A stretch of DNA of 64,000 nt, taken from Glaciihabitans sp. Its GTDB lineage: Bacteria > Actinomycetota > Actinomycetes > Actinomycetales > Microbacteriaceae. The stretch is taken from NCBI GenBank assembly GCA_025465535.1, contig JAODMY010000098.1, positions 1 through 64,000 on the forward strand, read 5' to 3'. Position numbers and translations under genes: made by a program. Below the pieces are notes generated by a model, which saw nothing but the letters and a program-made list of their open reading frames with translations, did not search any database and was not told the DNA's origin. This document shows positions 4,937 through 52,766 of this stretch, piece after piece; position 1 is the stretch's first letter, and the number at the start of each line of letters is the position of its first letter.

Positions 4937-5484
4937 CGACCCTCGAACAGTCGGCTGGTGAGGTCTTTCGCACTGTCGTTGTTCAACGAATCCGGCAGGA
5001 AGATCACGCGGTAGACGATGGGCGCGACGAGTCCGTCGATCACCTCGTCCACGGTCAGCGGGCTCGACGCACCGTAGCGTTCGACGAGCATTCCGGCCTC
5101 GGCGCGACGGTTGCGCAGGCAGTCCGACTGGGTGTCGCCGGCGGATGCCGCACCGCCTCGCAGGATGGCCGCGTTCGTCGGGTTGCTGTAGTGCTCGATG
5201 ATTTCGCGGGCCCACTCGGTGAGGTCCGACCTGAGGTCACCGGTCTCGGGAATGGGCCGCTTGGGATCGAGCCGATAGGTAGCGATGTCGTTGATCATGG
5301 TCTGCAAGTCGCCCCAGCGACGGTAGACGCTCGTCGGGTTGACGCCGGCGCGCTCGGCAACCATGGGAATAGTTACCCGCTCGCGACCCTTCTCCTTGAC
5401 GAGCTCTTCGACCGCGTTCCTCACCGAGGTCAGGACCGCTGCGCTGCGGCCACCGGGGCGCTTCTGGACTGGGCTCGTGCTCAT
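4933..5484 (-). CDS. TetR/AcrR-family transcriptional regulator
   Basis: A 183-residue protein with an N-terminal helix-turn-helix (about residues 12-58: VTIPMVAERAGVNPTSVYRRWGD is the recognition unit) and a C-terminal ligand domain rich in helices. It is divergent from the MFS gene starting at 5575. The 90-bp gap holds two matching GCAA-N6-TTGC palindromes, so it most likely represses itself and the MFS-NTF2 operon, with derepression by a transported compound. Ligand unknown. Confidence 0.9.
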   Translation of the reverse strand: MSTSPVQKRPGGRSAAVLTSVRNAVEELVKEKGRERVTIPMVAERAGVNPTSVYRRWGDLQTMINDIATYRLDPKRPIPETGDLRSDLTEWAREIIEHYSNPTNAAILRGGAASAGDTQSDCLRNRRAEAGMLVERYGASSPLTVDEVIDGLVAPIVYRVIFLPDSLNNDSAKDLTSRLFEGR

Positions 5485-9183: not shown

Positions 9184-9735
9184 CTAGAACTTGCGCTGGA
9201 ACGGCAGGGGCGCCCGCATCCTGAGCAGCAGGATGAGCGGAACGAGAACGTACGCCCCGTTGTAGAGCAGGAACATTCCGGGATTGGGTGTGCGGTCGGC
9301 GGCCGGTCCGAAGAACTCGTCGCCGAAAATCGGGATGGCCGTCAGGCTGATGATCATCGTCGCGTAGATGACCGCGAAGATCTGGATGCGGTTCCAGCCC
9401 TTCGCGAGCGAGATGATCAGGATCACGTAGAACGGCAGGTAGAGGAACGCCGAGGTTCCCGAGATGAAGCGAAGCCACACCTGCTCACTCTGGTACAGCG
9501 GGTCGTAGTTCGATGCGTAGGTGTAATTCCACTGCGCGAGCAAATTGGTCGAGTGTGCGACCTGCGGGATGCCGAGACCTTCGACCGAGTCGCTGATGAT
9601 GCACGTGATGATGAACACGCTGAACACCACGATGAAGAAGATGTCGACCGGTCGTTTGCGTAGCGGAAGGTTCGTCGATTCGGCTGCGGTTATTGCTCGG
9701 GCCGATGTCGAGTTGCTCTTTGCGCTAGGGACCAC
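9184..9735 (-). CDS. EXPERA-like (TMEM97/EBP-type) membrane protein
   Basis: A 183-residue protein with four membrane helices (about residues 28-50, 95-115, 120-142, 157-173). The pattern RPVDIFFIVVF...DSVEG, then YLPFYVILIISL and YATMIISL, with acidic and aromatic residues inside helices, resembles the EXPERA fold of sterol isomerase/TMEM97 relatives. The GTG start at 9735 has a leaderless promoter: minus-strand TAAAGT (9742-9747) with 6 nt between. The function in bacteria is unknown. The family match is moderately sure. Confidence 0.6.
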   Translation of the reverse strand: MVPSAKSNSTSARAITAAESTNLPLRKRPVDIFFIVVFSVFIITCIISDSVEGLGIPQVAHSTNLLAQWNYTYASNYDPLYQSEQVWLRFISGTSAFLYLPFYVILIISLAKGWNRIQIFAVIYATMIISLTAIPIFGDEFFGPAADRTPNPGMFLLYNGAYVLVPLILLLRMRAPLPFQRKF

Positions 9736-9771
9736 GCGATTACTTTAGCCACGCGACGAGCTCGCCGCACG

Positions 9772-10581
9772 TCAGCGCTTGTGCGCGACGATTTCGAGCA
9801 CCGCGTCGTGTAGCACGCCGTTGGTCGCGAGCGCCGATTCGTGCCAGGGACCCTCGTCGCCGTCGACGGACGTGAAGCGCCCGCCCGCCTCCTCGATGAT
9901 CGGGATGAGGGCGGCCATGTCCCACGGTTTAAGGTCGAATTCGCCGGCGATGTCGATCGCGCCCTCGGCCAGCAGCATGTAGGCCCAGAGCTCGCCGACC
10001 GCGCGTGAGCGCCAGGTTGCGCGGGTGAGTGCGATGAGCTCGTCGAGTCGCCCCGCTTCATCCCAGCCCGGAAGGTTGTTGTAGTTGATGGATGCGTCAG
10101 CCAGGTTGGCGATGCCGCTCACGGCGAGCTTGACGGCAGCCTCGCCATTTGCGCCAGCGCCCGTGGTCTCGGTCCAGGCGCCGTGGCCCTTCGCGGCCCA
10201 CCAGCGCTTGCCGAGGGCGGGGGCGCTGACCACGCCGACGATCGGCACGCCATCGATCACAAGCGAGAGGAGTGTTCCCCAGATGGGAACGCCGCGGAGG
10301 AAGTTGGCTGTGCCATCGATCGGGTCGATGATCCACTGGCGTCCCGGTGTGCGCTCGCCGCCGTACTCCTCGCCGAGGACGGTGTCGTGCGGTCGCGACG
10401 CCTCGATTCGTTCCCGGATGAGGCGCTCGACGGCCTGGTCGGCATCCGTCACTGGCGTGCGATCGGGCTTCGTCGTCACGACGAGATCGAGCGCCCGATA
10501 GCGATCGAGCGAGATGAGGTCGGCATCGGCGGCGATCGCGAGGGCGACACTCAGGTCGTCTGCTGGGGTGAATTCTGGCAC
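9772..10581 (-). CDS. hisN: Histidinol-phosphatase (inositol-monophosphatase fold)
   Basis: A 269-residue Mg-dependent phosphatase. Metal-binding motifs are GEEYGG near residue 70 and IDPIDGTANF near 85-94, with the C-terminal metal site EFDLKPWDMAAL near 215. This subfamily in actinobacteria dephosphorylates histidinol-phosphate in histidine synthesis; inositol-1-phosphatase activity cannot be excluded. The GTG start is supported by minus-strand TAGGGT (10588-10593), 6 nt upstream. Confidence 0.85.
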   Translation of the reverse strand: MPEFTPADDLSVALAIAADADLISLDRYRALDLVVTTKPDRTPVTDADQAVERLIRERIEASRPHDTVLGEEYGGERTPGRQWIIDPIDGTANFLRGVPIWGTLLSLVIDGVPIVGVVSAPALGKRWWAAKGHGAWTETTGAGANGEAAVKLAVSGIANLADASINYNNLPGWDEAGRLDELIALTRATWRSRAVGELWAYMLLAEGAIDIAGEFDLKPWDMAALIPIIEEAGGRFTSVDGDEGPWHESALATNGVLHDAVLEIVAHKR

Positions 10582-10684
10582 GTCACAACCCTACCGATCG
10601 GCGGTTAACGCAGGGTGTCCAGCGTGCTTCCGTCGTCGGAGCCGCCGTCGCCCGGCCGCCGGTCAGCTGACGGCAGCGGGGCGG

Positions 10685-32292: not shown

Positions 32293-32355
32293 GTCCCTGC
32301 TGACCTTCGCCACTAGTTCTGTCGTTGTGAGCTCAGGGCGATCGCGGCCAGAATC

Positions 32356-32364
32356 TTATCCACA
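32356..32364 (+). other. Isolated DnaA-box match
   Basis: TTATCCACA is a perfect match to the DnaA box, upstream of the HNH gene. No cluster of boxes or AT-rich unwinding region is present, so an origin is not claimed. Confidence 0.25.
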
Positions 32365-32379
32365 GATTTGACTAAACCT

Positions 32380-32395
32380 TCGAAACTTTGTTCGA
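32380..32395. promoter_or_regulatory. LexA-type SOS box upstream of the HNH gene
   Basis: TCGAAACTTTGTTCGA matches the actinobacterial SOS box TCGAAC-N4-GTTCGA with one mismatch. It covers the region where the -35 should be; GAGAAT at 32403-32408 is 6 nt before the ATG at 32415. Confidence 0.65.
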
Positions 32396-33590
32396 ACTCT
32401 GCGAGAATGGGTTCATGGAAAACCTGGGTCTCGCGCTGGTGGAATCGGCTTCTGCCGTTGCCGCGCTTGGCTGTTCCCGGGCCGCGATCGAGTCGCTGGA
32501 TGACGCGTCGGTTCTGGCCGGGATGACATTGGTGCGCGAGCACCAGCAGCACCTGCAGACCTACCAGTTGTGGCTCGCCGCCGCGATTTCGCGGCGGTCC
32601 GATCACGAGTTCGGCGACGGCGGGCTTGCTCGCAGGAACGGCTCCGCGACACCGCGCGACCTGATCCAGCAGCTCACCGGTGCCAGCTTCATCGATGCCG
32701 CGAAGCTGGCCAACCTTGGGGCGATGGCGGTTGCCGCAGAGGATGCGGCCAAGATCGCCGCCGCGACCGCTGGCGGAAATGCTGGGGCGGTCGACGGTGG
32801 CTTCGAGACAGGAATCGCGCCGGTCGTGTCGGCATTGACAGCGGGTGAGCTGTCGCTGGATGCGGCGGATGCGATCCGTCGAGGGCTCGGCCGTGCTGAT
32901 GCTGCCGTCACCGACGAGCAATTGCGAGAGGCAGCCATCGAGCTGGTCGCTCGGGCGGGTTTGGTGCCGCCAGAGGCACTGTTGCGGCTGGCGCGGCAGG
33001 CGCGCAACGACCTGGATCTCGCGGCAGTGGAGCGCGGGCAGAAGCAGCGTGCTGATCTTCGATACGTGCGCCGGTTACGTCGGGATGGGATGTGCGGCGG
33101 ATCGTGGCTGCTCCCCGAAGAAGACGGCGGCCTCGAGATCGACAACGCACTGCAGCTATTGCTCGCGAGCCGTACCGGCGGCCCACGGTTTCCCGCAACC
33201 GACCGCGACGGCAACCCGATCGATCGGTCGCGGGCTAATGCAACCGCCGACGAGGTGTCCCCGGAATCGGCTCGCACGAACGAACAGGTTCTCGCTGACG
33301 GATTCGCACAGGTGTTCCACAACGGCATCACCGCCGACCCGTCCGTCATCCCCGGCGCCCAGCGCGCGGCCGTGCGAGTGATTGTCACCGAGGAGGTGCT
33401 CGCTACCGGTCTTGACACCGGAGCCGGTGCTGGTGCTGGTGGCGGTGCTGGTGGCGGTGGCGGTGGCGATATTGGTACCTCCGGTGGTGGGGGTTCGGCG
33501 CTCCTCGAAGAGACCCTCACGGCAATCACGTTCGGCAAGCTTGCCGAGTACCTCTGTGAAGGCGGAACCGTTGACGTGATGTTCGACGGC

Positions 33591-33626
33591 ACCGATAGCA
33601 CCGATAGCACCGATAGCACCGATGAC
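33591..33626 (+). repeat. Four in-frame 9-bp repeats in the HNH gene
   Basis: ACCGATAGC three times, then ACCGATGAC, encoding Thr-Asp-Ser repeats in the linker before the HNH module. The array can change length without shifting frame. Confidence 0.75.
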
Positions 33627-33821
33627 ACCGACGGCACAGACGACTCAGGCAATCGTGGCATTCTCAACGTCGGGCGCGAGCATCGGCTCTTTACCGCCCG
33701 GCAGCGAACGGCTCTTGCGGTCAGGGACGGCGGATGCCGGTTCCCCGGCTGCCAGAAACCCCCGTCCTGGACCGAGGCCCATCACGTCGAACACTGGGTT
33801 CGGGATCGCGGCAAGACAGAC

Positions 33822-33832
33822 ATCGCAAACGG
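33822..33832. other. Left attachment site core
   Basis: ATCGCAAACGG, identical to 37960-37970. A further ATCGCAAA follows at 33838-33845, 16 bp downstream inside the element. Confidence 0.8.
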
Positions 33833-33853
33833 GACAAATCGCAAATACATCCC

Positions 33854-33865
33854 CGATGTACATCG
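33854..33865. promoter_or_regulatory. 12-bp palindrome inside the left end
   Basis: CGATGTACATCG is a perfect palindrome 21 bp inside the element. It is a candidate binding site for the recombinase, a directionality factor or a regulator. Confidence 0.35.
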
Positions 33866-33945
33866 CGATAAGGAAGCGCAGGTGAAGAGTCGTGCCGCAG
33901 TGAGTTTAAGTCGTTCTTCGCAGTAAAGTTCAGTCGGAGGAACGA

Positions 33946-35226
33946 ATGACCACGACGCAACAAGTCAAGTCCAAGGCGGTCGTCTCAACCAGATCGACGC
34001 CAACGCGTGCGTCCACGAAGACAGCGGTGTCCCCGACAGCAAAAACGCGAGAAAAGGACGAGTCGGTCTACATCGCTCGAATGGCGGTGGCGCTCCTTTG
34101 CATGCCTGACAAAACCGAACCGCTTTTCACAGTTCCGGCTGCTCGACTGCTTGCGTCAGAGGTAGAGCTCAAATTTCGCGAGGCACTCAAAGGCGACCTA
34201 CGTGTCTTGGACGTGCTCCTGCCCGGCGATAAGGACGAGGATACGGACAACGCTACGGTCATGCGGTATCTGCAGATGGACGAGAGCGAATCCAACATTC
34301 AGGACGCGGTGAGACGAGTCCCCGTCATGCGCCTGAACTCTCCGATCAGATTTCGCGTGCGCGTACCAGCAAAGAACCAGCCGAAGTATCGGAGTCGCGA
34401 CGATGTCCCATCGGACGACTATCTCGTGTGGTGGAACGGGATCGTCGTGGTCGTTCAATGGGAAATGAAAGAACCACGTGCGACGGGCTCTGGCGGGCAC
34501 ATAGTTCTGCAGATACTGGAAGAAGTCGGTTCGAAGGTCGGACACCCGGTAGAAATAGTGCCTTGTTCGACAGGCTGTCACCATAGATTCATCCACGGTG
34601 ACTTCGTAACGTTTGCAGGTACCAAAGCACCGGATCACTTTTACATATCTGGGGAAACGCCTGTCGGAAAGACCGTCATAACGCCGTTCGTTAAGCCGGC
34701 GAACGATCTGACCGCGCTAAATCAGGCGTCAGGCTTGACGGAAACCTTGATCGAGTACTTCGCGCGGGCAAAGACGTTTCTCGACGCGATTTGGTTCTTG
34801 GAGCATCGAGCGCGAGACGGCTCCGACAAGATATTGGAGATTGCGTATGCGCGCGCGCGAAAGCGTAGATTCCCGCATCTCTTGGGCTGGACGGCCGATA
34901 CGTTCGCTCTAATCGGCTCGCGCCGTGAGACGAAAGCGTTGGTTGCAGAGTTATGGCTTGCACTCATCTCAATCGACAACTTCAAAGTCAACTGGCGTAC
35001 GAGCGAAACTAGCTTTCGGCACCAGCTCGATGACACTCCGTTGGCTGCCCTTGATGAACTGTTTGATACGGGTCGAGCATATGTTGAAAGTCTTGACCTC
35101 GATCTAATCCGCTCGTCCTTGCAGGAGGTCAGTACTCGAATGGATGGCCGAATGATTGCAATAGCGACCATCGCAGGTGGCATCGCCGGAATCGCGGGCG
35201 CCGCGCTAGCGGCGCTCTTTACTTGA
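33946..35226 (+). CDS. Unrecognised cargo protein with C-terminal membrane segment
   Basis: A 426-residue protein with a good GGAGG ribosome site 5 nt before the ATG. I do not recognise the family. Seen: a Thr/Ser/Lys-rich N-terminal tail (1-35), a soluble alpha/beta-looking region (about 40-240) with a CSTGCHHRF Cys/His cluster near 208, a helical region (260-390), and a final hydrophobic Gly-zipper-like segment (MIAIATIAGGIAGIAGAALA, about 400-426) likely to insert in a membrane. Two hand-counted 60-base lines (34081 and 34561) have 57% and 50% G+C, lower than the flanks, suggesting separate origin. As the only large non-mobility gene it is the cargo. An anti-phage or toxic role is a guess. 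Confidence 0.8.
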   Translation: MTTTQQVKSKAVVSTRSTPTRASTKTAVSPTAKTREKDESVYIARMAVALLCMPDKTEPLFTVPAARLLASEVELKFREALKGDLRVLDVLLPGDKDEDTDNATVMRYLQMDESESNIQDAVRRVPVMRLNSPIRFRVRVPAKNQPKYRSRDDVPSDDYLVWWNGIVVVVQWEMKEPRATGSGGHIVLQILEEVGSKVGHPVEIVPCSTGCHHRFIHGDFVTFAGTKAPDHFYISGETPVGKTVITPFVKPANDLTALNQASGLTETLIEYFARAKTFLDAIWFLEHRARDGSDKILEIAYARARKRRFPHLLGWTADTFALIGSRRETKALVAELWLALISIDNFKVNWRTSETSFRHQLDDTPLAALDELFDTGRAYVESLDLDLIRSSLQEVSTRMDGRMIAIATIAGGIAGIAGAALAALFT

Positions 35227-35591
35227 ATTAGCAACATAACTCGGGAGCCCGGCAGGGCGATCGAGGGCAAGTGATTGAGGCGCCGAAGGCGGCGAAATCG
35301 CGCGGCAGGAAATGGGGGGGGGTAGACGGGGGTAATGACATGCGTGTAGTTCCCCGCTATAAATGACATAGAGCAAGTCACGGATGCTGCACAGTGTGCC
35401 GCTATTTTACAAAAGGTATGAGGGGCCCGGTTTCGGGCCGAGCGGCGCTAGAAGGCCAGTGTCCCCCGCTCGAACCAGATCGATGAAGAGGCCAGACCCG
35501 GTTGAATTCCGGGCACTGAAGCAGCGCGCGGTCTCCTCGGTGATTGTCGTTGAGTTCAGTGATTCCTGTCGGCATCTAACTCTGGGCTTCA
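35227..35591 (+). other. Non-coding region before the initiator gene; candidate replication origin
   Basis: 365 bp without a convincing gene. It holds a G-run (near 35316-35323), a CGCC-GAA-GGCG hairpin (35281-35291), two AATGACAT copies (near 35335 and 35362) and a GGCCCG-GTTT-CGGGCC hairpin (35424-35439). Rolling-circle double-strand origins usually lie next to rep and contain such hairpins, so this is the best origin candidate. Confidence 0.35.
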
Positions 35592-36371
35592 ATGCAATCT
35601 CTTTCAGCGCCTTCGACTCTCGCGCAGTTGTCGCGTCCGGATGCCGGATGGATGTTCTCGCTTTATCCGGATGCGGGGGAGGGCGGCGGTTCGTTCCGTA
35701 GCTCGATCCGGCGGGTTCCAAGCTATGTCTCGCGGGGTTTCGCGGCTGCCCCTGAGCGGTCAATGGCTGAGGCTGGCAGGCGTGCACGCGGTCGGCTGCG
35801 CCGGTATTGTGCCGCGAACCGGTTGAACCGGCTTGGCACGCTGACCTATCGGGGTGACGGATGTCACGATCCTGAACTGGTGCGTGCACATCTGGGCGAT
35901 TTCTTCCGTGGGTTGCGGGTGGCGACCGGTGGCAAGGCGTTCCCGTATGTGTGGGTGCCGGAGTGGCACAAGACTGGGCACGGATTGCATGCCCATTTCG
36001 CGGTCGGCCGATATGTCAATCGTTCGCTGATCGCGTCGGCGTGGGGCCACGGCTTTGTGCACATCAAGATGCTTGGCGATCTCCCGGTGGGGTCGGGGGC
36101 ACTGTCAGAGGCACGCCGAGCGGCGGGATATCTGTCGAAGTATGTGGCGAAGACTTTCACTGATCCGACCACACGCGTGTTGGGGCTGCACCGGTACGAC
36201 GTAGCGCAGGGTTTCAAACCGCGCCCGGTGGCGCTGTCAGGTCGCAGCTCCGATGATGTCCTGTCGCAGGCATCGGCGGTGCTGGGATCGGGGCCGTCGT
36301 TCGAATGGTCGTCTTCTTCGGTGAAGGACTGGCAAGGGCCACCGTCGATTTGGGCACAGTGGGGTGCCTGA
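35592..36371 (+). CDS. HUH-type rolling-circle replication initiator
   Basis: A 259-residue Rep-like protein. Motif I is LGTLTYR (81-87), motif II HUH is H133-A-H135 in HGLHAHF, and motif III YLSKYVAK supplies the catalytic tyrosine (Y180 or Y184). Such enzymes nick one strand at an origin and stay covalently attached to the 5' end; here it would replicate or mobilise the excised circle. No clear ribosome site is seen before the ATG, so the start is uncertain. Its TGA overlaps the ATG of the next small gene (TGATG). Confidence 0.8.
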   Translation: MQSLSAPSTLAQLSRPDAGWMFSLYPDAGEGGGSFRSSIRRVPSYVSRGFAAAPERSMAEAGRRARGRLRRYCAANRLNRLGTLTYRGDGCHDPELVRAHLGDFFRGLRVATGGKAFPYVWVPEWHKTGHGLHAHFAVGRYVNRSLIASAWGHGFVHIKMLGDLPVGSGALSEARRAAGYLSKYVAKTFTDPTTRVLGLHRYDVAQGFKPRPVALSGRSSDDVLSQASAVLGSGPSFEWSSSSVKDWQGPPSIWAQWGA

Positions 36372-36655
36372 TGAGCGTGGATCGCGAAGCGGTGCGGGCA
36401 TGGCTCGAAGCTTCCTGCCGTACGCAGGGTGTCCCGGTGCTGGTCACCGATGCTGGGGTCGTGTCGCAGGTGCGGACACTGCTGGCCGGTCGGGATGCTG
36501 CGGGGATTCGCGGAGCGGGTCCCGCAGCGCCCGCCCGGTCAGTGGCTCCACGTCGGCACGATTCGGGACGGGTCAACGCCTTGGGCCCCTTGGACGCCCG
36601 GGCCGATGGTGGCGAAATCGAGGACGGCTCCCACGATCGCCGCTTGGCGGGATAG
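36371..36655 (+). CDS. Small protein translationally coupled to the Rep gene
   Basis: A 94-residue protein starting MSVDREAVRAWLEASCRTQGV, with ATG inside the rep stop (TGATG), indicating coupling. The first 45 residues look like a compact helical domain; the tail is Arg/Gly-rich and overlaps the recombinase gene antisense by 117 bp. The family is unrecognised. It could be an accessory replication or directionality protein, but no excisionase motif is visible. Confidence 0.55.
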   Translation: MSVDREAVRAWLEASCRTQGVPVLVTDAGVVSQVRTLLAGRDAAGIRGAGPAAPARSVAPRRHDSGRVNALGPLDARADGGEIEDGSHDRRLAG

Positions 36656-37939
36656 GTTCAGGGTCGACCAGCTCGTGCGGAGCGCGTCACCATTGCCGAC
36701 TAGCCCGGTGAGGGCGCTGTGCCCGGTGAGCTGGTCAATCTGACGGCTGATGTTGTAGATGCGGGCCTCGATTGGTTCCCGTGCGACCTTCCACTCTGCC
36801 GGGGAAATCTCCCGGTTGCCCATCATCCCGGCAAGTTCGGCCATGAGCGCCTGGTCGGATTGAAGCTCGAGCAGTAGCGCCGCATGTCGGTCGTCGGCGG
36901 CGGCCCGGCCCGCGAGAGCGTCGGCCATCGCAGGGCTGTCGAGTCGGATCAGTACCGCCTCGGCGATCCATTCCTCGACTGGCGCGGCCACGATCGTCAA
37001 TCTGCCGCAGCCACCATGATCTGGGCCCGACATGCAGACGTATCGGCGCCGTTCGCCGCGCACGGAACTGAAGAGCTTGTTGCCACACTTCCCACACCGC
37101 AGCATCCCCGACAAGAGGTAGCGTCGGGCCACACGCCGCCCGGTGCTTGCCTTCCGCGCGAACGCTGCAACAAGTTGCTCGTGGGTTGCGGGTGTGATGA
37201 TCGCGGGCCATACGGCCGTCGCGACAACGACGCCGTTGTGAGCGCGTAACCCCGCGATGCGGGGGTTGGTGAGCGTCTGTCGGAGGGTGGTCGTCCGCCA
37301 CGGCAGCCCGGCGACCGACAGCACGCCCTGATCCTGCAACCACCCGGTTAGCGACATCAGGGACTCGCCCGCGAGGTAGCGGTCGGCAAGTTGCCGGATC
37401 ACCGTCGCCTCAGACTCCACGACCGTCAACTGATCCTTCTCGTATCCGAAAGGCCGCAGATGGCCGCCGTTGGGTTTGCCCGCCTCGGCAGTTTCTTGCG
37501 CCTTCCGTTTCAGCCGGGCCGACTTCCGGGCCGATTCCTTCGCCGCCACGATCGACAGAATCCGGGCCATGAACAGGCCATCGTCGTTACCTAAGTCGAT
37601 ATCCGCGGTAACGGTGGCGAACTGTTGCAATCCAGCCCGCTCACACACCTGCACGAACTGCTCAAGCTCGATCGGTCGTCGGGTCAACCTGTCCGTGTGA
37701 TAAACGACAACCGCGTCACGCTGACCCGCCTCGATGTCCTCGATCATCCGCTGGTAGCTCGGGCGACGCTTGCCCTTGTAGGCGGAAATGTCGTTGTCGA
37801 CGTACTCCTCAGCGACGATCCACCCGCGTTTCGCAGCAAGGGTTCGGCAGTCGTCGAGCTGGCGCTCGACGCCTAATCCTTCGCCCGTTGCGTCGCGGGA
37901 AATGCGGGCATAAATCGCGGCACGAACGGGAATCTGCAT
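36539..37939 (-). CDS. Large serine recombinase (integrase) of the element
   Basis: A 466-residue large serine recombinase. The resolvase domain has the nucleophile serine S14 in YARISRD, the conserved R-Q-x2-D-C segment (GVERQLDDC), DNDISAYKGKRRPSY and DRLTRRPIELE. The recombinase domain and a zinc ribbon (CGKCGNKLFSS...VCMSGPDHGGCG) follow, then a coiled-coil-like tail. It catalyses att recombination through a Ser-DNA link without host ligase. Start at MQIPVRA: minus-strand TAATAT (37947-37952) is exactly 7 nt upstream. The gene ends the element 21 bp from the att core. Confidence 0.93.
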   Translation of the reverse strand: MQIPVRAAIYARISRDATGEGLGVERQLDDCRTLAAKRGWIVAEEYVDNDISAYKGKRRPSYQRMIEDIEAGQRDAVVVYHTDRLTRRPIELEQFVQVCERAGLQQFATVTADIDLGNDDGLFMARILSIVAAKESARKSARLKRKAQETAEAGKPNGGHLRPFGYEKDQLTVVESEATVIRQLADRYLAGESLMSLTGWLQDQGVLSVAGLPWRTTTLRQTLTNPRIAGLRAHNGVVVATAVWPAIITPATHEQLVAAFARKASTGRRVARRYLLSGMLRCGKCGNKLFSSVRGERRRYVCMSGPDHGGCGRLTIVAAPVEEWIAEAVLIRLDSPAMADALAGRAAADDRHAALLLELQSDQALMAELAGMMGNREISPAEWKVAREPIEARIYNISRQIDQLTGHSALTGLVGNGDALRTSWSTLNLSRQAAIVGAVLDFATIGPGVQGAQGVDPSRIVPTWSH

Positions 37940-37946
37940 GGGGGTC

Positions 37947-37970
37947 ATATTAGCAATTGATCGCAAACGG
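37947..37970 (-). promoter_or_regulatory. Integrase -10 element and right attachment core
   Basis: Minus-strand -10 TAATAT at 37947-37952; att core ATCGCAAACGG at 37960-37970. In the integrated state the hexamer 17 bp upstream of the -10 is CAGGCC (poor). In the joined circle it becomes TTGTCC. Confidence 0.6.
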
Positions 37971-38163
37971 CCTGCTGCTCTGCCGGTACCACCACATGCT
38001 GATCCATAACAACGGCTGGGAGGTCCGGCGCGGTGACGACCGAAGCCGCAGCTCCTATTGGCTCAAACCTCCGCCGAGTATCGACCCGAGGCAGGAGTTG
38101 ATCGAAATGCGCAGCAGGAACCCGCTGCTCACGGCGGCGCGCCAGATCCAGGATGCGGGCTGA
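37960..38163 (+). pseudogene. DUF222/HNH endonuclease, 3' part
   Basis: 67 codons in the frame of the 5' part: IANGLLLCRYHHMLIHNNGW carries the HNH second half (C-RYHH-LIHNNGW), then a variable tail ending ARQIQDAG. It has no start of its own in the original gene. A TTG at 37957 and an upstream antisense promoter give no evidence that it is expressed while the element is present. Confidence 0.85.
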
Positions 38164-38197
38164 GCTGCCGAGCGGGCCAGGTCGCAGGTTCGACTAA

Positions 38198-38257
38198 ACC
38201 AGTGAGCGACTCGTTGGCGATCCGTATCCGACGGATTGCGGCTGGGCAATCACTGGT
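38198..38257. terminator. Nested inverted repeat after the HNH gene
   Basis: ACCAGTGA (38198-38205) pairs with TCACTGGT (38250-38257) around an inner ATCCGT/ACGGAT stem (38220-38236). It lies between the HNH remnant and the convergent flavoprotein gene, so a two-way terminator is likely. Confidence 0.4.
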
Positions 38258-51206: not shown

Positions 51207-52766
51207 ATGTCCGACCACGCCGCAGACCCCGCCGCAGACACTTCCGCAGGCACTTCTCCCTCTCCCGCGGAATCCGCTTCCCCGGCGGCGTGGCGAGCGC
51301 TCGTCGTGCTCCTCATCGGGATGTTCATGGCGCTGCTGGATACGACCATTGTCAATGTCGCGCTGCCGACCATCCGCGACAACGTCAACGGTGCGGGCAG
51401 CCAACCGGCGGGCGACGACATCCTGTCCTGGGTCATCTCCGGCTACGCGCTCGCATTCGGAATCGCTCTCATCCCCGCGGGAAGGCTCGGCGATCGGTTC
51501 GGACACAAGTGGATATTTTTCTCTGGCCTCGCTCTGTTCACGGTCGCGAGCCTCGCCTGCGGCCTCGCCCAGTCAGATATCCAGCTCGTCATCGCCCGCG
51601 TTGTGCAGGGTCTTGCCGGCGGCATCTTCCTGCCGGCCGTCACCGCGTTCATCCAGATACTGTTCCCCGGTCGCGTACGGGGCAAGGCGTTCGCCATCAT
51701 GGGCGCGGTCATCGGAGTCTCGAGCGCGCTCGGTCCCATCGTCGGCGGCCTGATCATCCAGGCCTTCGGGACGGCAAACGGTTGGCGTCTCGTCTTCGGT
51801 GTGAACCTGCCGATCGGTGTCGTCGCGCTGGTTCTCGCGATCATTCTCATTCCGGGCAACGAGCGCGTGGGGGAGATCACGGCGCGGACATCGGTCCGGG
51901 GCAGATCCGGCGGGGTCGACTGGATCGGCCTGATCCTGCTGACCGGCGGACTCGTCGCAATCCTCGTTCCCCTGATCGAGGGACAGACCGTCAACTGGAA
52001 GCCGTGGACCTACGAGACGCTGGCTGGCGGCGCGCTCCTGATCGTCCTGTTCGGGATCTGGGAGGTCTTCTACACGCGGCGCGGGCGCAGTCCGCTCGTG
52101 CCGCCGCACCTGTTCAGCCACCCGGCGTTCACGGGCGGAACGATTCTCGCGCTGGTCTACTTCGCCGCCTTCACGAGCATCTTCTTCACGATCTCGTTGC
52201 TCTGGCAGGCAGGACTTGGCCACACGGCGCTCGAGTCCGGGCTCGTCTCTGTTCCGTTTGCGATCGGATCCATCATCGGTTCGTCACAGAGCAACCGGCT
52301 CGCGCAGCGCCTCGGTCGCACCGTGTTGATCATCGGCACGGGCCTGGTCGCAGCCAGCCTGCTCGTGATCTGGATCATCCTTCTGAACGTGGATGGCAGG
52401 GATCTCACCAACTGGGATCTGCTCGCGCCGCTGTTCTTCGCGGGTCTCGGCAATGGAATGTTCATCGCTCCGAACGCGCAGTTCATTGTCGCGACCGTCG
52501 ATCCGTCGGAGGCCGGGGCGGCCAGCGGCGTGATCGCAACCATGCAGCGAGTGGGCGCGGCGATCGGCATCGCCGTCATCGGCAGCGTGCTGTTCACCCT
52601 GGTTGCGAACGTGGCGCCATCCATCCACAGCCAGGCGGATCTCGGGACGGCGTTCACGAACGCATCGGCGGGTGCAATCGGGGTGAGTGTCATCTTCGCG
52701 GTGGTCGCATTCGCTCTCGTGTTCGCGCTTCCGCGGCGCCTTTCGCAGCAGCGGCCAGCACACTAA
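51207..52766 (+). CDS. DHA2-family MFS drug-efflux transporter (14-helix)
   Basis: A 519-residue EmrB/QacA-type pump. Helix 1 has FMALLDTTIVNVALPTI (family motif), AGRLGDRFGHKWIF (loop 2-3) and RVVQGLAGGIFLPAV. About fourteen helices. Start ATG 51207 follows AAAGGA; upstream codons are not conserved in style and contain the leader hairpin. An Ala/Pro/Ser-rich N-terminal tail of 30 residues is typical. Confidence 0.92.
   Translation: MSDHAADPAADTSAGTSPSPAESASPAAWRALVVLLIGMFMALLDTTIVNVALPTIRDNVNGAGSQPAGDDILSWVISGYALAFGIALIPAGRLGDRFGHKWIFFSGLALFTVASLACGLAQSDIQLVIARVVQGLAGGIFLPAVTAFIQILFPGRVRGKAFAIMGAVIGVSSALGPIVGGLIIQAFGTANGWRLVFGVNLPIGVVALVLAIILIPGNERVGEITARTSVRGRSGGVDWIGLILLTGGLVAILVPLIEGQTVNWKPWTYETLAGGALLIVLFGIWEVFYTRRGRSPLVPPHLFSHPAFTGGTILALVYFAAFTSIFFTISLLWQAGLGHTALESGLVSVPFAIGSIIGSSQSNRLAQRLGRTVLIIGTGLVAASLLVIWIILLNVDGRDLTNWDLLAPLFFAGLGNGMFIAPNAQFIVATVDPSEAGAASGVIATMQRVGAAIGIAVIGSVLFTLVANVAPSIHSQADLGTAFTNASAGAIGVSVIFAVVAFALVFALPRRLSQQRPAH

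What the first reader, a model, noticed from the sequence alone, without database searches (positions are those of the whole stretch)
32415..38163. A 4.1-kb serine-integrase element splits an SOS-type DUF222/HNH gene and is reversible in frame
Both gene halves share the 11-bp core ATCGCAAACGG (33822 and 37960), the codon phase is identical, and joining them restores the HNH motif (HHVEHW...CRYHH..LIHNNGW). Excision would therefore switch a 536-residue nuclease gene back on. The known phiRv1 prophage of M. tuberculosis uses DUF222/HNH repeats (REP13E12) as target, so a family of unrelated small elements may exploit the same multicopy gene family in Microbacteriaceae.
Basis: partly seen in the sequence, partly recalled or inferred. 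Interest (0 to 1): 0.85.

Follow-up and report, generated by a model that had tools for sequence, protein, structure and literature searches.

The report
Tiny defence-cassette islands inside HNH genes
A 4.1-kb mobile element sits exactly in the catalytic asparagine codon of a DUF222/HNH nuclease gene, and it belongs to a widespread actinobacterial family of tiny elements that share one replication/integration backbone while swapping a single, mostly anti-phage-like cargo gene.

Summary
ATCGCAAACGG occurs at 33822 and 37960. Joining the halves gives an open 536-aa DUF222/HNH gene, and a same-genus genome has the syntenic gene uninterrupted. The 11-bp length is not the conserved feature: 27 relatives with both gene halves share only the two bases at the start of the HNH Asn codon (AA, rarely GA).

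The element is one of at least 40 related mini-elements (about 3.3-5.9 kb), almost all in Actinomycetota. All sit in the same codon of DUF222/HNH genes. The backbone is constant: attP, serine integrase, a coupled small ORF (candidate directionality factor), an HUH Rep, and a conserved origin-like motif CTTnACTTGAAnnAGCAACRTAACTCG. Between attP and that motif lies one exchangeable cargo slot, often TIR, SIR2, AIPR, PIN, OLD-like ATPase, STAND or RelA/SpoT proteins. Near-identical backbones carry unrelated cargos, with homology starting at the motif.

The window's cargo (426 aa, C-terminal hydrophobic helix) is an uncharacterised family that recurs in three sister elements. Mycobacterial relatives of the integrase carry RepSA and FtsK, so they look like AICEs. 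I read the mini-elements as Tra-less AICE kin that disperse defence-type cassettes. Excision, replication, transfer and defence are inferred, not shown.

The parts
32380..32395 (+). SOS/LexA-type box upstream of the interrupted host gene
   Evidence: TCGAAACTTTGTTCGA, 1 mismatch to TCGAACN4GTTCGA; perfect boxes at the same offset in the sister loci L034 and L036
32415..33832 (+). N-terminal part of host DUF222/HNH gene, up to the Asn-Gly codons of the HNH motif
   Evidence: Pfam PF02720; reads on 31 codons into the element before a stop
33822..33854 (+). attL: crossover region plus element P' arm (ACAAATCGCAAATACATCCCC, 33834-33854)
   Evidence: 11-bp repeat; arm conserved in 27 elements
33946..35226 (+). 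Cargo gene, 426 aa, C-terminal hydrophobic helix, no known family
   Evidence: No Pfam, PHROG or PADLOC hit; homologues are the cargo of sister elements L048, L040, L104
35196..35217 (+). GC-rich hairpin directly before the origin-like motif
   Evidence: Fold energy z = -4.4; clear hairpins precede many but not all of 38 motifs
35217..35243 (+). Conserved motif CTTTACTTGAATTAGCAACATAACTCG, putative rolling-circle double-strand origin (nick site inferred)
   Evidence: Same motif in 39 loci; inter-element homology restarts exactly here
35592..36371 (+). HUH replication initiator, 259 aa
   Evidence: PF23343 REP_ORF2-G2P E=4e-16 and phrog_3419 rolling-circle initiation; conserved HxH and YxxKY motifs in 51 homologues
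36371..36655 (+). Small ORF, 94 aa, overlapping the Rep stop by one base; candidate recombination directionality factor
   Evidence: Core VRAWLEASCxxQGVPVxVTD found between rep and int in 60 loci, including RepSA-type relatives; no Pfam hit
36539..37948 (-). Large serine integrase (likely start ATG at 37948; open frame extends to TTG 37966)
   Evidence: PF00239, PF07508, PF13408; phrog_95 integrase E=3e-103
37941..37970 (+). attR: element P arm (GGGGTCATATTAGC...) plus crossover region
   Evidence: Arm conserved in 41 right junctions
37971..38163 (+). C-terminal part of host DUF222/HNH gene
   Evidence: In frame with the N-terminal part; HNH remainder LLLCRYHHMLIHNNGW

Best explanation
It is a minimal site-specific integrating element. 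The serine integrase recombines attP with the most conserved codons of a multicopy DUF222/HNH gene, crossing over at the first two bases of the HNH Asn codon; this splits the gene and inactivates that copy (integration shown by comparison, mechanism inferred). After excision, helped perhaps by the small ORF, the circle would be copied by the HUH Rep from the conserved motif upstream of rep (inferred). With no Tra, capsid or other transfer gene, it must reach new cells with help, for example from a co-resident AICE, or by transformation (inferred). Its selective value is one cargo cassette between attP and the origin-like motif, most often a defence-type protein. The window's cargo is probably an uncharacterised, possibly membrane-associated anti-phage or abortive-infection factor (inferred by association). 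Cassettes are exchanged between backbones with breakpoints at attP and the motif (shown by comparison).
For: Exact repeat and in-frame join; empty syntenic site in the same genus. Integrase relatives of 48-76% identity with the DUF222/HNH halves ending and restarting at HMM columns 425-430, 27 elements with both halves. att arms conserved. HUH Rep in 51 loci with HxH and YxxKY motifs. Motif in 39 loci. Small ORF in 60 loci. Cargo Pfam: TIR x2, ThsB_TIR, CAP12/Pycsar TIR, SIR2_2 x2, AIPR x2, PIN_8, AAA_15/AAA_21 x2 (one with DUF3226), RelA_SpoT, AAA/STAND, DUF4062 x2; flanking control genes give mainly housekeeping Pfams. Backbones 86% identical at DNA level with unrelated cargos, homology starting at the motif (L048/L049); cargo more similar than integrase (AIPR 68% versus 57%). 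RepSA and FtsK in mycobacterial relatives. Excision of a serine-recombinase AICE that disrupts a putative endonuclease gene was detected by PCR in Frankia (PMC3218068).
Against: No direct evidence of excision, replication, transfer or defence for any member. The window cargo has no recognised family, a homologue sits outside any such element (G432), and its structure model is poor (pLDDT 52). About a third of the cargos scanned have no informative hit. Some homologous integrases use other target genes. Motif and Rep could serve mobilisation rather than replication.
Confidence: 0.8

Rival explanations
1. Remnant of a larger AICE or prophage that lost its transfer or virion genes; the small size is decay and the element is no longer mobile.
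For: Mycobacterial relatives of the integrase carry RepSA and FtsK/SpoIIIE. Some copies have broken integrase or rep (L104, L107, L022/L031). Ghinet et al. describe rep- or tra-less 'remnant AICEs' (PMC3218068).
Against: The same compact order (cargo-motif-rep-small ORF-int) recurs in many genera with intact att sites and intact genes, cargos are swapped between near-identical backbones, and one genome can hold two different members (L034 and L036 in Lacisediminihabitans profunda). Decay would not give a uniform layout.
Confidence: 0.12
2. Phage satellite: the element is mobilised by packaging into the capsids of a helper phage, with the cargo as anti-helper or anti-competitor weapon.
For: Size, serine integrase of phage type (phrog_95), defence-like cargo and HUH Rep would fit; the SOS box of the host gene could couple it to induction.
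Against: No terminase, cos or pac, or capsid-redirecting gene. No close integrase relative in IMG/VR and no motif match there. No Rep relative in 50,697 phage records; phage integrases are at most about 38% identical.
Confidence: 0.1
3. Programmed gene switch like skin, SPbeta or active lysogeny: the host uses excision to turn the DUF222/HNH nuclease back on, for example during the SOS response.
For: SOS box upstream of the host gene; restored frame on excision.
Against: Frame restoration is automatic. The interrupted gene is one of at least six DUF222 loci in this genome, is absent from the syntenic position in two sister genomes, and most other host genes lack the SOS box. No conserved association with one orthologous gene.
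Confidence: 0.04
4. Two native neighbouring genes or an assembly chimera.
For: The window genome is a draft of 152 contigs at 90% completeness.
Against: Both flanks are syntenic with same-genus genomes, and the same junction structure recurs in independent assemblies.
Confidence: 0.01

Closest known systems
[quoted passage not shown] in particular Frankia Faln2929 and the mycobacterial AICEs with serine recombinases (Ghinet et al. 2011, PMC3218068)
   Same: Serine integrase convergent with rep; rolling-circle-type replication gene; insertion in a putative endonuclease gene (Faln2929); some integrase relatives here carry RepSA and FtsK and share the small ORF.
   Different: No FtsK/SpoIIIE Tra; a different, short HUH Rep (REP_ORF2-G2P); 3.3-5.9 kb; one cargo slot with mostly defence-type genes.
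phiRv1 prophage of M. tuberculosis in REP13E12 (cited in PMC9317374)
   Same: Serine recombinase and a repeated target containing the DUF222/HNH family (the latter from general knowledge).
   Different: Phage-like with genes for virus-like particles; its attB codon was not compared here; the window integrase's nearest annotated phage integrases are at most about 38% identical.
Integrative and mobilizable elements (IMEs)
   Same: Small, integrase plus a Rep-like HUH protein, dependent on outside transfer machinery (inferred).
   Different: No oriT, relaxase role or helper shown.
Defence-cargo carriers such as P4-like satellites, PICIs and Tn7-like transposons (PMC8649781)
   Same: Fixed backbone with a variable, defence-rich cargo slot.
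   Different: Different recombinase, no packaging or transposition genes, usually one cargo gene, target always the HNH Asn codon in this clade.
Large serine recombinases that converge on one conserved gene site (Durrant et al. 2022, PMC10083194)
   Same: Diverse integrases using one conserved coding-sequence site.
   Different: HNH and DUF222 are not named in that paper's main text; the element family and its cargo slot are not described there.

Membership tests
Large serine recombinase integrase family | Resolvase catalytic domain plus Recombinase and zinc-ribbon domains | tested here: met
   PF00239, PF07508 and PF13408 all above cut-off
Large serine recombinase integrase family | attP next to int, attB and attP sharing a crossover dinucleotide, att sites bounding the element | tested here: met
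   Junctions of 27 elements; AA (or GA) shared in all
AICE | FtsK/SpoIIIE (TraB-type) transfer protein | tested here: not met
   Only cargo, Rep, small ORF and Int are encoded
AICE | RepSA, RepAM or Prim-Pol replication protein | tested here: not met
   Rep is REP_ORF2-G2P; RepSA is found only in relatives such as L051
AICE | Site-specific integrase and integration with flanking att sites | tested here: met
Temperate phage or phiRv1-like prophage | Virion or packaging genes | tested here: not met
   None among the ORFs of the 4.1-kb element
Phage satellite | Packaging by a helper phage | not testable with these tools
   No relative in phage records or IMG/VR, but packaging was not assayed
Rolling-circle replicon | HUH initiator with HxH and YxxK motifs | tested here: met
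   GLHxHF and YLSKYV conserved in 51 homologues; phrog_3419
Rolling-circle replicon | Functional double-strand origin nicked by Rep | not testable with these tools
   Candidate motif in 39 loci; nicking needs an assay
DUF222/HNH (13E12-type) gene as target | DUF222 domain plus HNH motif in one frame after joining | tested here: met
   own genome has six DUF222 loci
Anti-phage defence cargo | Cargo of this element belongs to a known defence family | tested here: not met
   P0004 has no Pfam, PHROG or PADLOC hit
Anti-phage defence cargo | Cargos of sister elements are defence-type proteins | tested here: met
   About half of the 30 cargo proteins scanned, plus L036 (TIR effector model)

The most novel reading that the evidence does not exclude
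The element family is a modular system for shuffling defence genes. When two elements sit in tandem at one att site, Rep would start at the origin of one and stop at the origin of the next, giving a circle with backbone 1 and cargo 2. Serine integrase and rolling-circle initiator together would then act as a precise single-gene cassette exchange machine, with breakpoints at attP and the nick site as observed.
Probability: 0.2. Interest if true: 0.85.

Novelty: new variant of a known kind. Interest (0 to 1): 0.66.

Why it matters
It defines a compact element family, not found described in the papers searched, with an exact insertion site (the catalytic Asn codon of a multicopy HNH gene), a fixed backbone and a single swappable slot. 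The slot is a ready place to look for unknown defence genes: the window's 426-aa protein, the recurrent 350-aa family (L069, L079, L101) and other orphan cargos become testable candidates. It also offers one reason why DUF222/HNH genes may be found broken in Actinobacteria, supplies a large set of serine integrases with inferred attB and attP pairs, and gives a candidate directionality factor for them.

Tried and rejected
(1) 11-bp core as the integrase core: rejected, relatives share only two bases in common. (2) Chance repeat or two native genes: rejected by synteny and recurrence. (3) Phage origin: close integrase relatives, Rep and motif are absent from viral collections. (4) Plasmid origin: Rep found on only two plasmid records, weakly. 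(5) Structure of the cargo: AlphaFold with three sequences gave pLDDT 52, so no fold search was run; no related solved structure by sequence; further homologues are rare (1 other in 396 genomes) and none in IMG/VR. (6) Hairpin before the motif as an obligatory part: not universal (13 of 38 with z < -2). (7) Tandem arrays of mini-elements, which the exchange model would predict, were not seen; only L086 (mycobacterial) holds two same-strand integrases. (8) First control set of flanking ORFs was contaminated by antisense ORFs and was replaced. (9) PADLOC counts on the pooled cargo set were not cleanly interpretable because models overlap (142 versus 42 models matched in cargo versus control).
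Full report
CHECK OF THE OBSERVATION. The repeat ATCGCAAACGG is exact at 33822 and 37960, 4,138 bp apart. A third copy at 52254 lies within an ORF that reads like an MFS transporter and is taken as chance. The joined frame is 536 aa and open. The left half is DUF222 by Pfam; the HNH parts fall below cut-off while split. The interior has a 426-aa cargo ORF without any known family, a 259-aa HUH Rep (PF23343; phrog_3419), a 94-aa ORF overlapping the Rep stop, and a convergent large serine integrase.

EMPTY SITE. In same-genus genome G004 the order is CBS-domain gene, intact DUF222/HNH gene (50% aa identity over the length), NemA-like gene, HAD gene; the frame runs through ...RTDIADGILLCRYHH.... 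G002 also has the HNH region unbroken next to the same CBS gene. In G001 and G005 CBS and NemA are neighbours with no DUF222 gene.

FAMILY. An integrase alignment found 125 relatives in 84,980 species genomes, of which 80 loci were kept, and only five weak ones in IMG/VR. With all loci turned the same way, the left DUF222/HNH half ends and the right half restarts at the same HMM columns 425-430, the D-x-x-N-G-x-L-L-C part of the HNH motif. Twenty-seven non-duplicate elements have both halves and 14 more show the right junction alone. Right arm consensus (upper case at least 80%): a.ggGGtCA.AtTAgCgA...gt....AAC; left arm: AACg.cgCaa.T....AAt.c..CC. The arms resemble an imperfect inverted repeat, as in serine-integrase attP sites. 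The shared run between the two junctions varies from 2 to 11 bp, and its only constant part is the first two bases of the Asn codon (AA, or GA on both sides in L034 and L036). I infer this to be the crossover dinucleotide. So the 11-bp match in the window is partly fortuitous.

BACKBONE. Rep homologues (51) keep HxH and YxxKY motifs. Upstream of rep lies CTTnACTTGAAnnAGCAACRTAACTCG in 39 loci, often behind a GC-rich hairpin. Position, conservation and the HUH Rep suggest a rolling-circle origin with a CTTG^A nick; this resemblance to pC194-type origins is from memory and untested. The small ORF (VRAWLEASCxxQGVPVxVTD core) is found between rep and int in 60 loci, including mycobacterial relatives with a different Rep. 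It therefore travels with the integrase, which makes it a candidate directionality factor.

CARGO SLOT. Between attP and the motif each element has one or two genes. Pfam finds TIR (L037, G068/L031), ThsB_TIR (L078), CAP12/Pycsar TIR (L092), SIR2_2 (L083, L099), AIPR (L044, L055), PIN_8 (L039), OLD-like ATPases (L045, L054 with DUF3226), RelA_SpoT (L033), AAA/STAND (L034 and, weakly, L075 and L084) and DUF4062 (L065, L070). PADLOC adds a TIR effector model for L036. Flanking control genes gave mainly housekeeping families in the 25 of 101 listed, so the control is supportive but not exhaustive. The closest clade to the window integrase (L033-L036, 65-76% identity, 100/99 support) carries five different cargos. 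Microbacterium L048 and L049 have 86% identical backbones from the motif through rep and int, yet unrelated cargos; homology restarts exactly at the motif in L048/L049, window/L034 and L038/L039. AIPR cargos of L044 and L055 are 68% identical although the integrases are 57%. In 27 of 30 elements the main cargo is co-directional with the host gene (sign test 8e-6, elements treated as independent). Genomes can hold two members with different cargos (Lacisediminihabitans profunda L034 and L036; Blastococcus MG754426 L064 and L075).

THE WINDOW'S CARGO. P0004 is homologous to the cargos of L048, L040 and L104, and one isolated chromosomal copy exists in G432. A C-terminal hydrophobic helix is predicted, but the model is poor. 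A defence role is inferred from its company only.

RELATION TO KNOWN ELEMENTS. The mycobacterial clade of the same integrase carries RepSA and FtsK/SpoIIIE (tested on L051), the marks of AICEs, and the right flank in L059, L067 and L086 encodes the HNH region in the opposite orientation. Ghinet et al. (PMC3218068) reported a Frankia AICE with a convergent serine recombinase that disrupts a putative endonuclease gene and whose circular form was detected by PCR although no RDF was recognised. The mini-elements lack Tra and RepSA, so they are not AICEs by definition, but they are plausibly Tra-less kin. No phage genes are present, no Rep relative was found in phage records, and IMG/VR gave no motif match and only weak integrase relatives. 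Durrant et al. (PMC10083194) show that diverse serine recombinases converge on single conserved gene sites; DUF222 and HNH are not named in its main text. Searches for DUF222 plus integrase and for 13E12 returned nothing describing this family. The library holds open-licence papers only, so novelty is not proven.

PREVALENCE. The Rep occurs in 10 of 400 Microbacteriaceae and 5 of 396 Actinomycetota genomes, counts including the window's own genome.

STATUS OF STEPS. Shown by sequence: insertion, empty site, common target codon, conserved backbone, cargo exchange boundaries, defence-type domains in many cargos. Inferred: excision and its factor, replication from the motif, helper-dependent transfer, defence by the window cargo, and the tandem rolling-circle model for cassette exchange, which has no direct support (no tandem mini-elements seen).

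Noticed in passing
L104 (Homoserinibacter gongjuensis) 5247-5405 and 9425-10605 on the reversed locus: A member inserted in the opposite orientation in a DUF222/HNH gene at almost the same site (shared ATCGACGA); its integrase and its P0004-like cargo both look frameshifted.
   Followed up: partly
L051-L061, L067, L086 (Mycobacteriaceae): AICE-like relatives with FtsK/SpoIIIE and RepSA, the same integrase clade and mostly the same small ORF, apparently inserted in opposite orientation in the HNH region; L086 has two integrases on one strand.
   Followed up: partly
L079, L082, L106 right junctions: Homologous integrases sit in another gene, at a Walker A-like motif (GKTTLLNCLAA) that looks like a CpaF/TadA-type ATPase: a second conserved catalytic motif used as target.
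   Followed up: no
L069, L079, L101 (and L049, weaker): A recurrent cargo family of about 350 aa with no Pfam (L069, L049) or PADLOC (L101, L049) hit: another orphan defence candidate.
   Followed up: no
L050, L055, L063, L084, between cargo and rep: A small conserved gene (about 120 aa) that looks like a helix-turn-helix protein, present in only some elements.
   Followed up: no
L043: A member with a DUF222/HNH junction whose putative Rep resembles the mycobacterial RepSA-type proteins (44-46%) instead of the G2P-like Rep: possible module exchange.
   Followed up: no
G000 contig C52 (L032:7777-9228): A second large serine recombinase in the same genome (43% identical over 290 aa), next to ORFs that may be phage-like.
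   Followed up: no
G001 and G005 at the locus syntenic to window 32300-38200: The DUF222/HNH gene is absent between the CBS and NemA genes, so the host gene itself is an accessory gene; the window genome has six DUF222 loci.
   Followed up: yes
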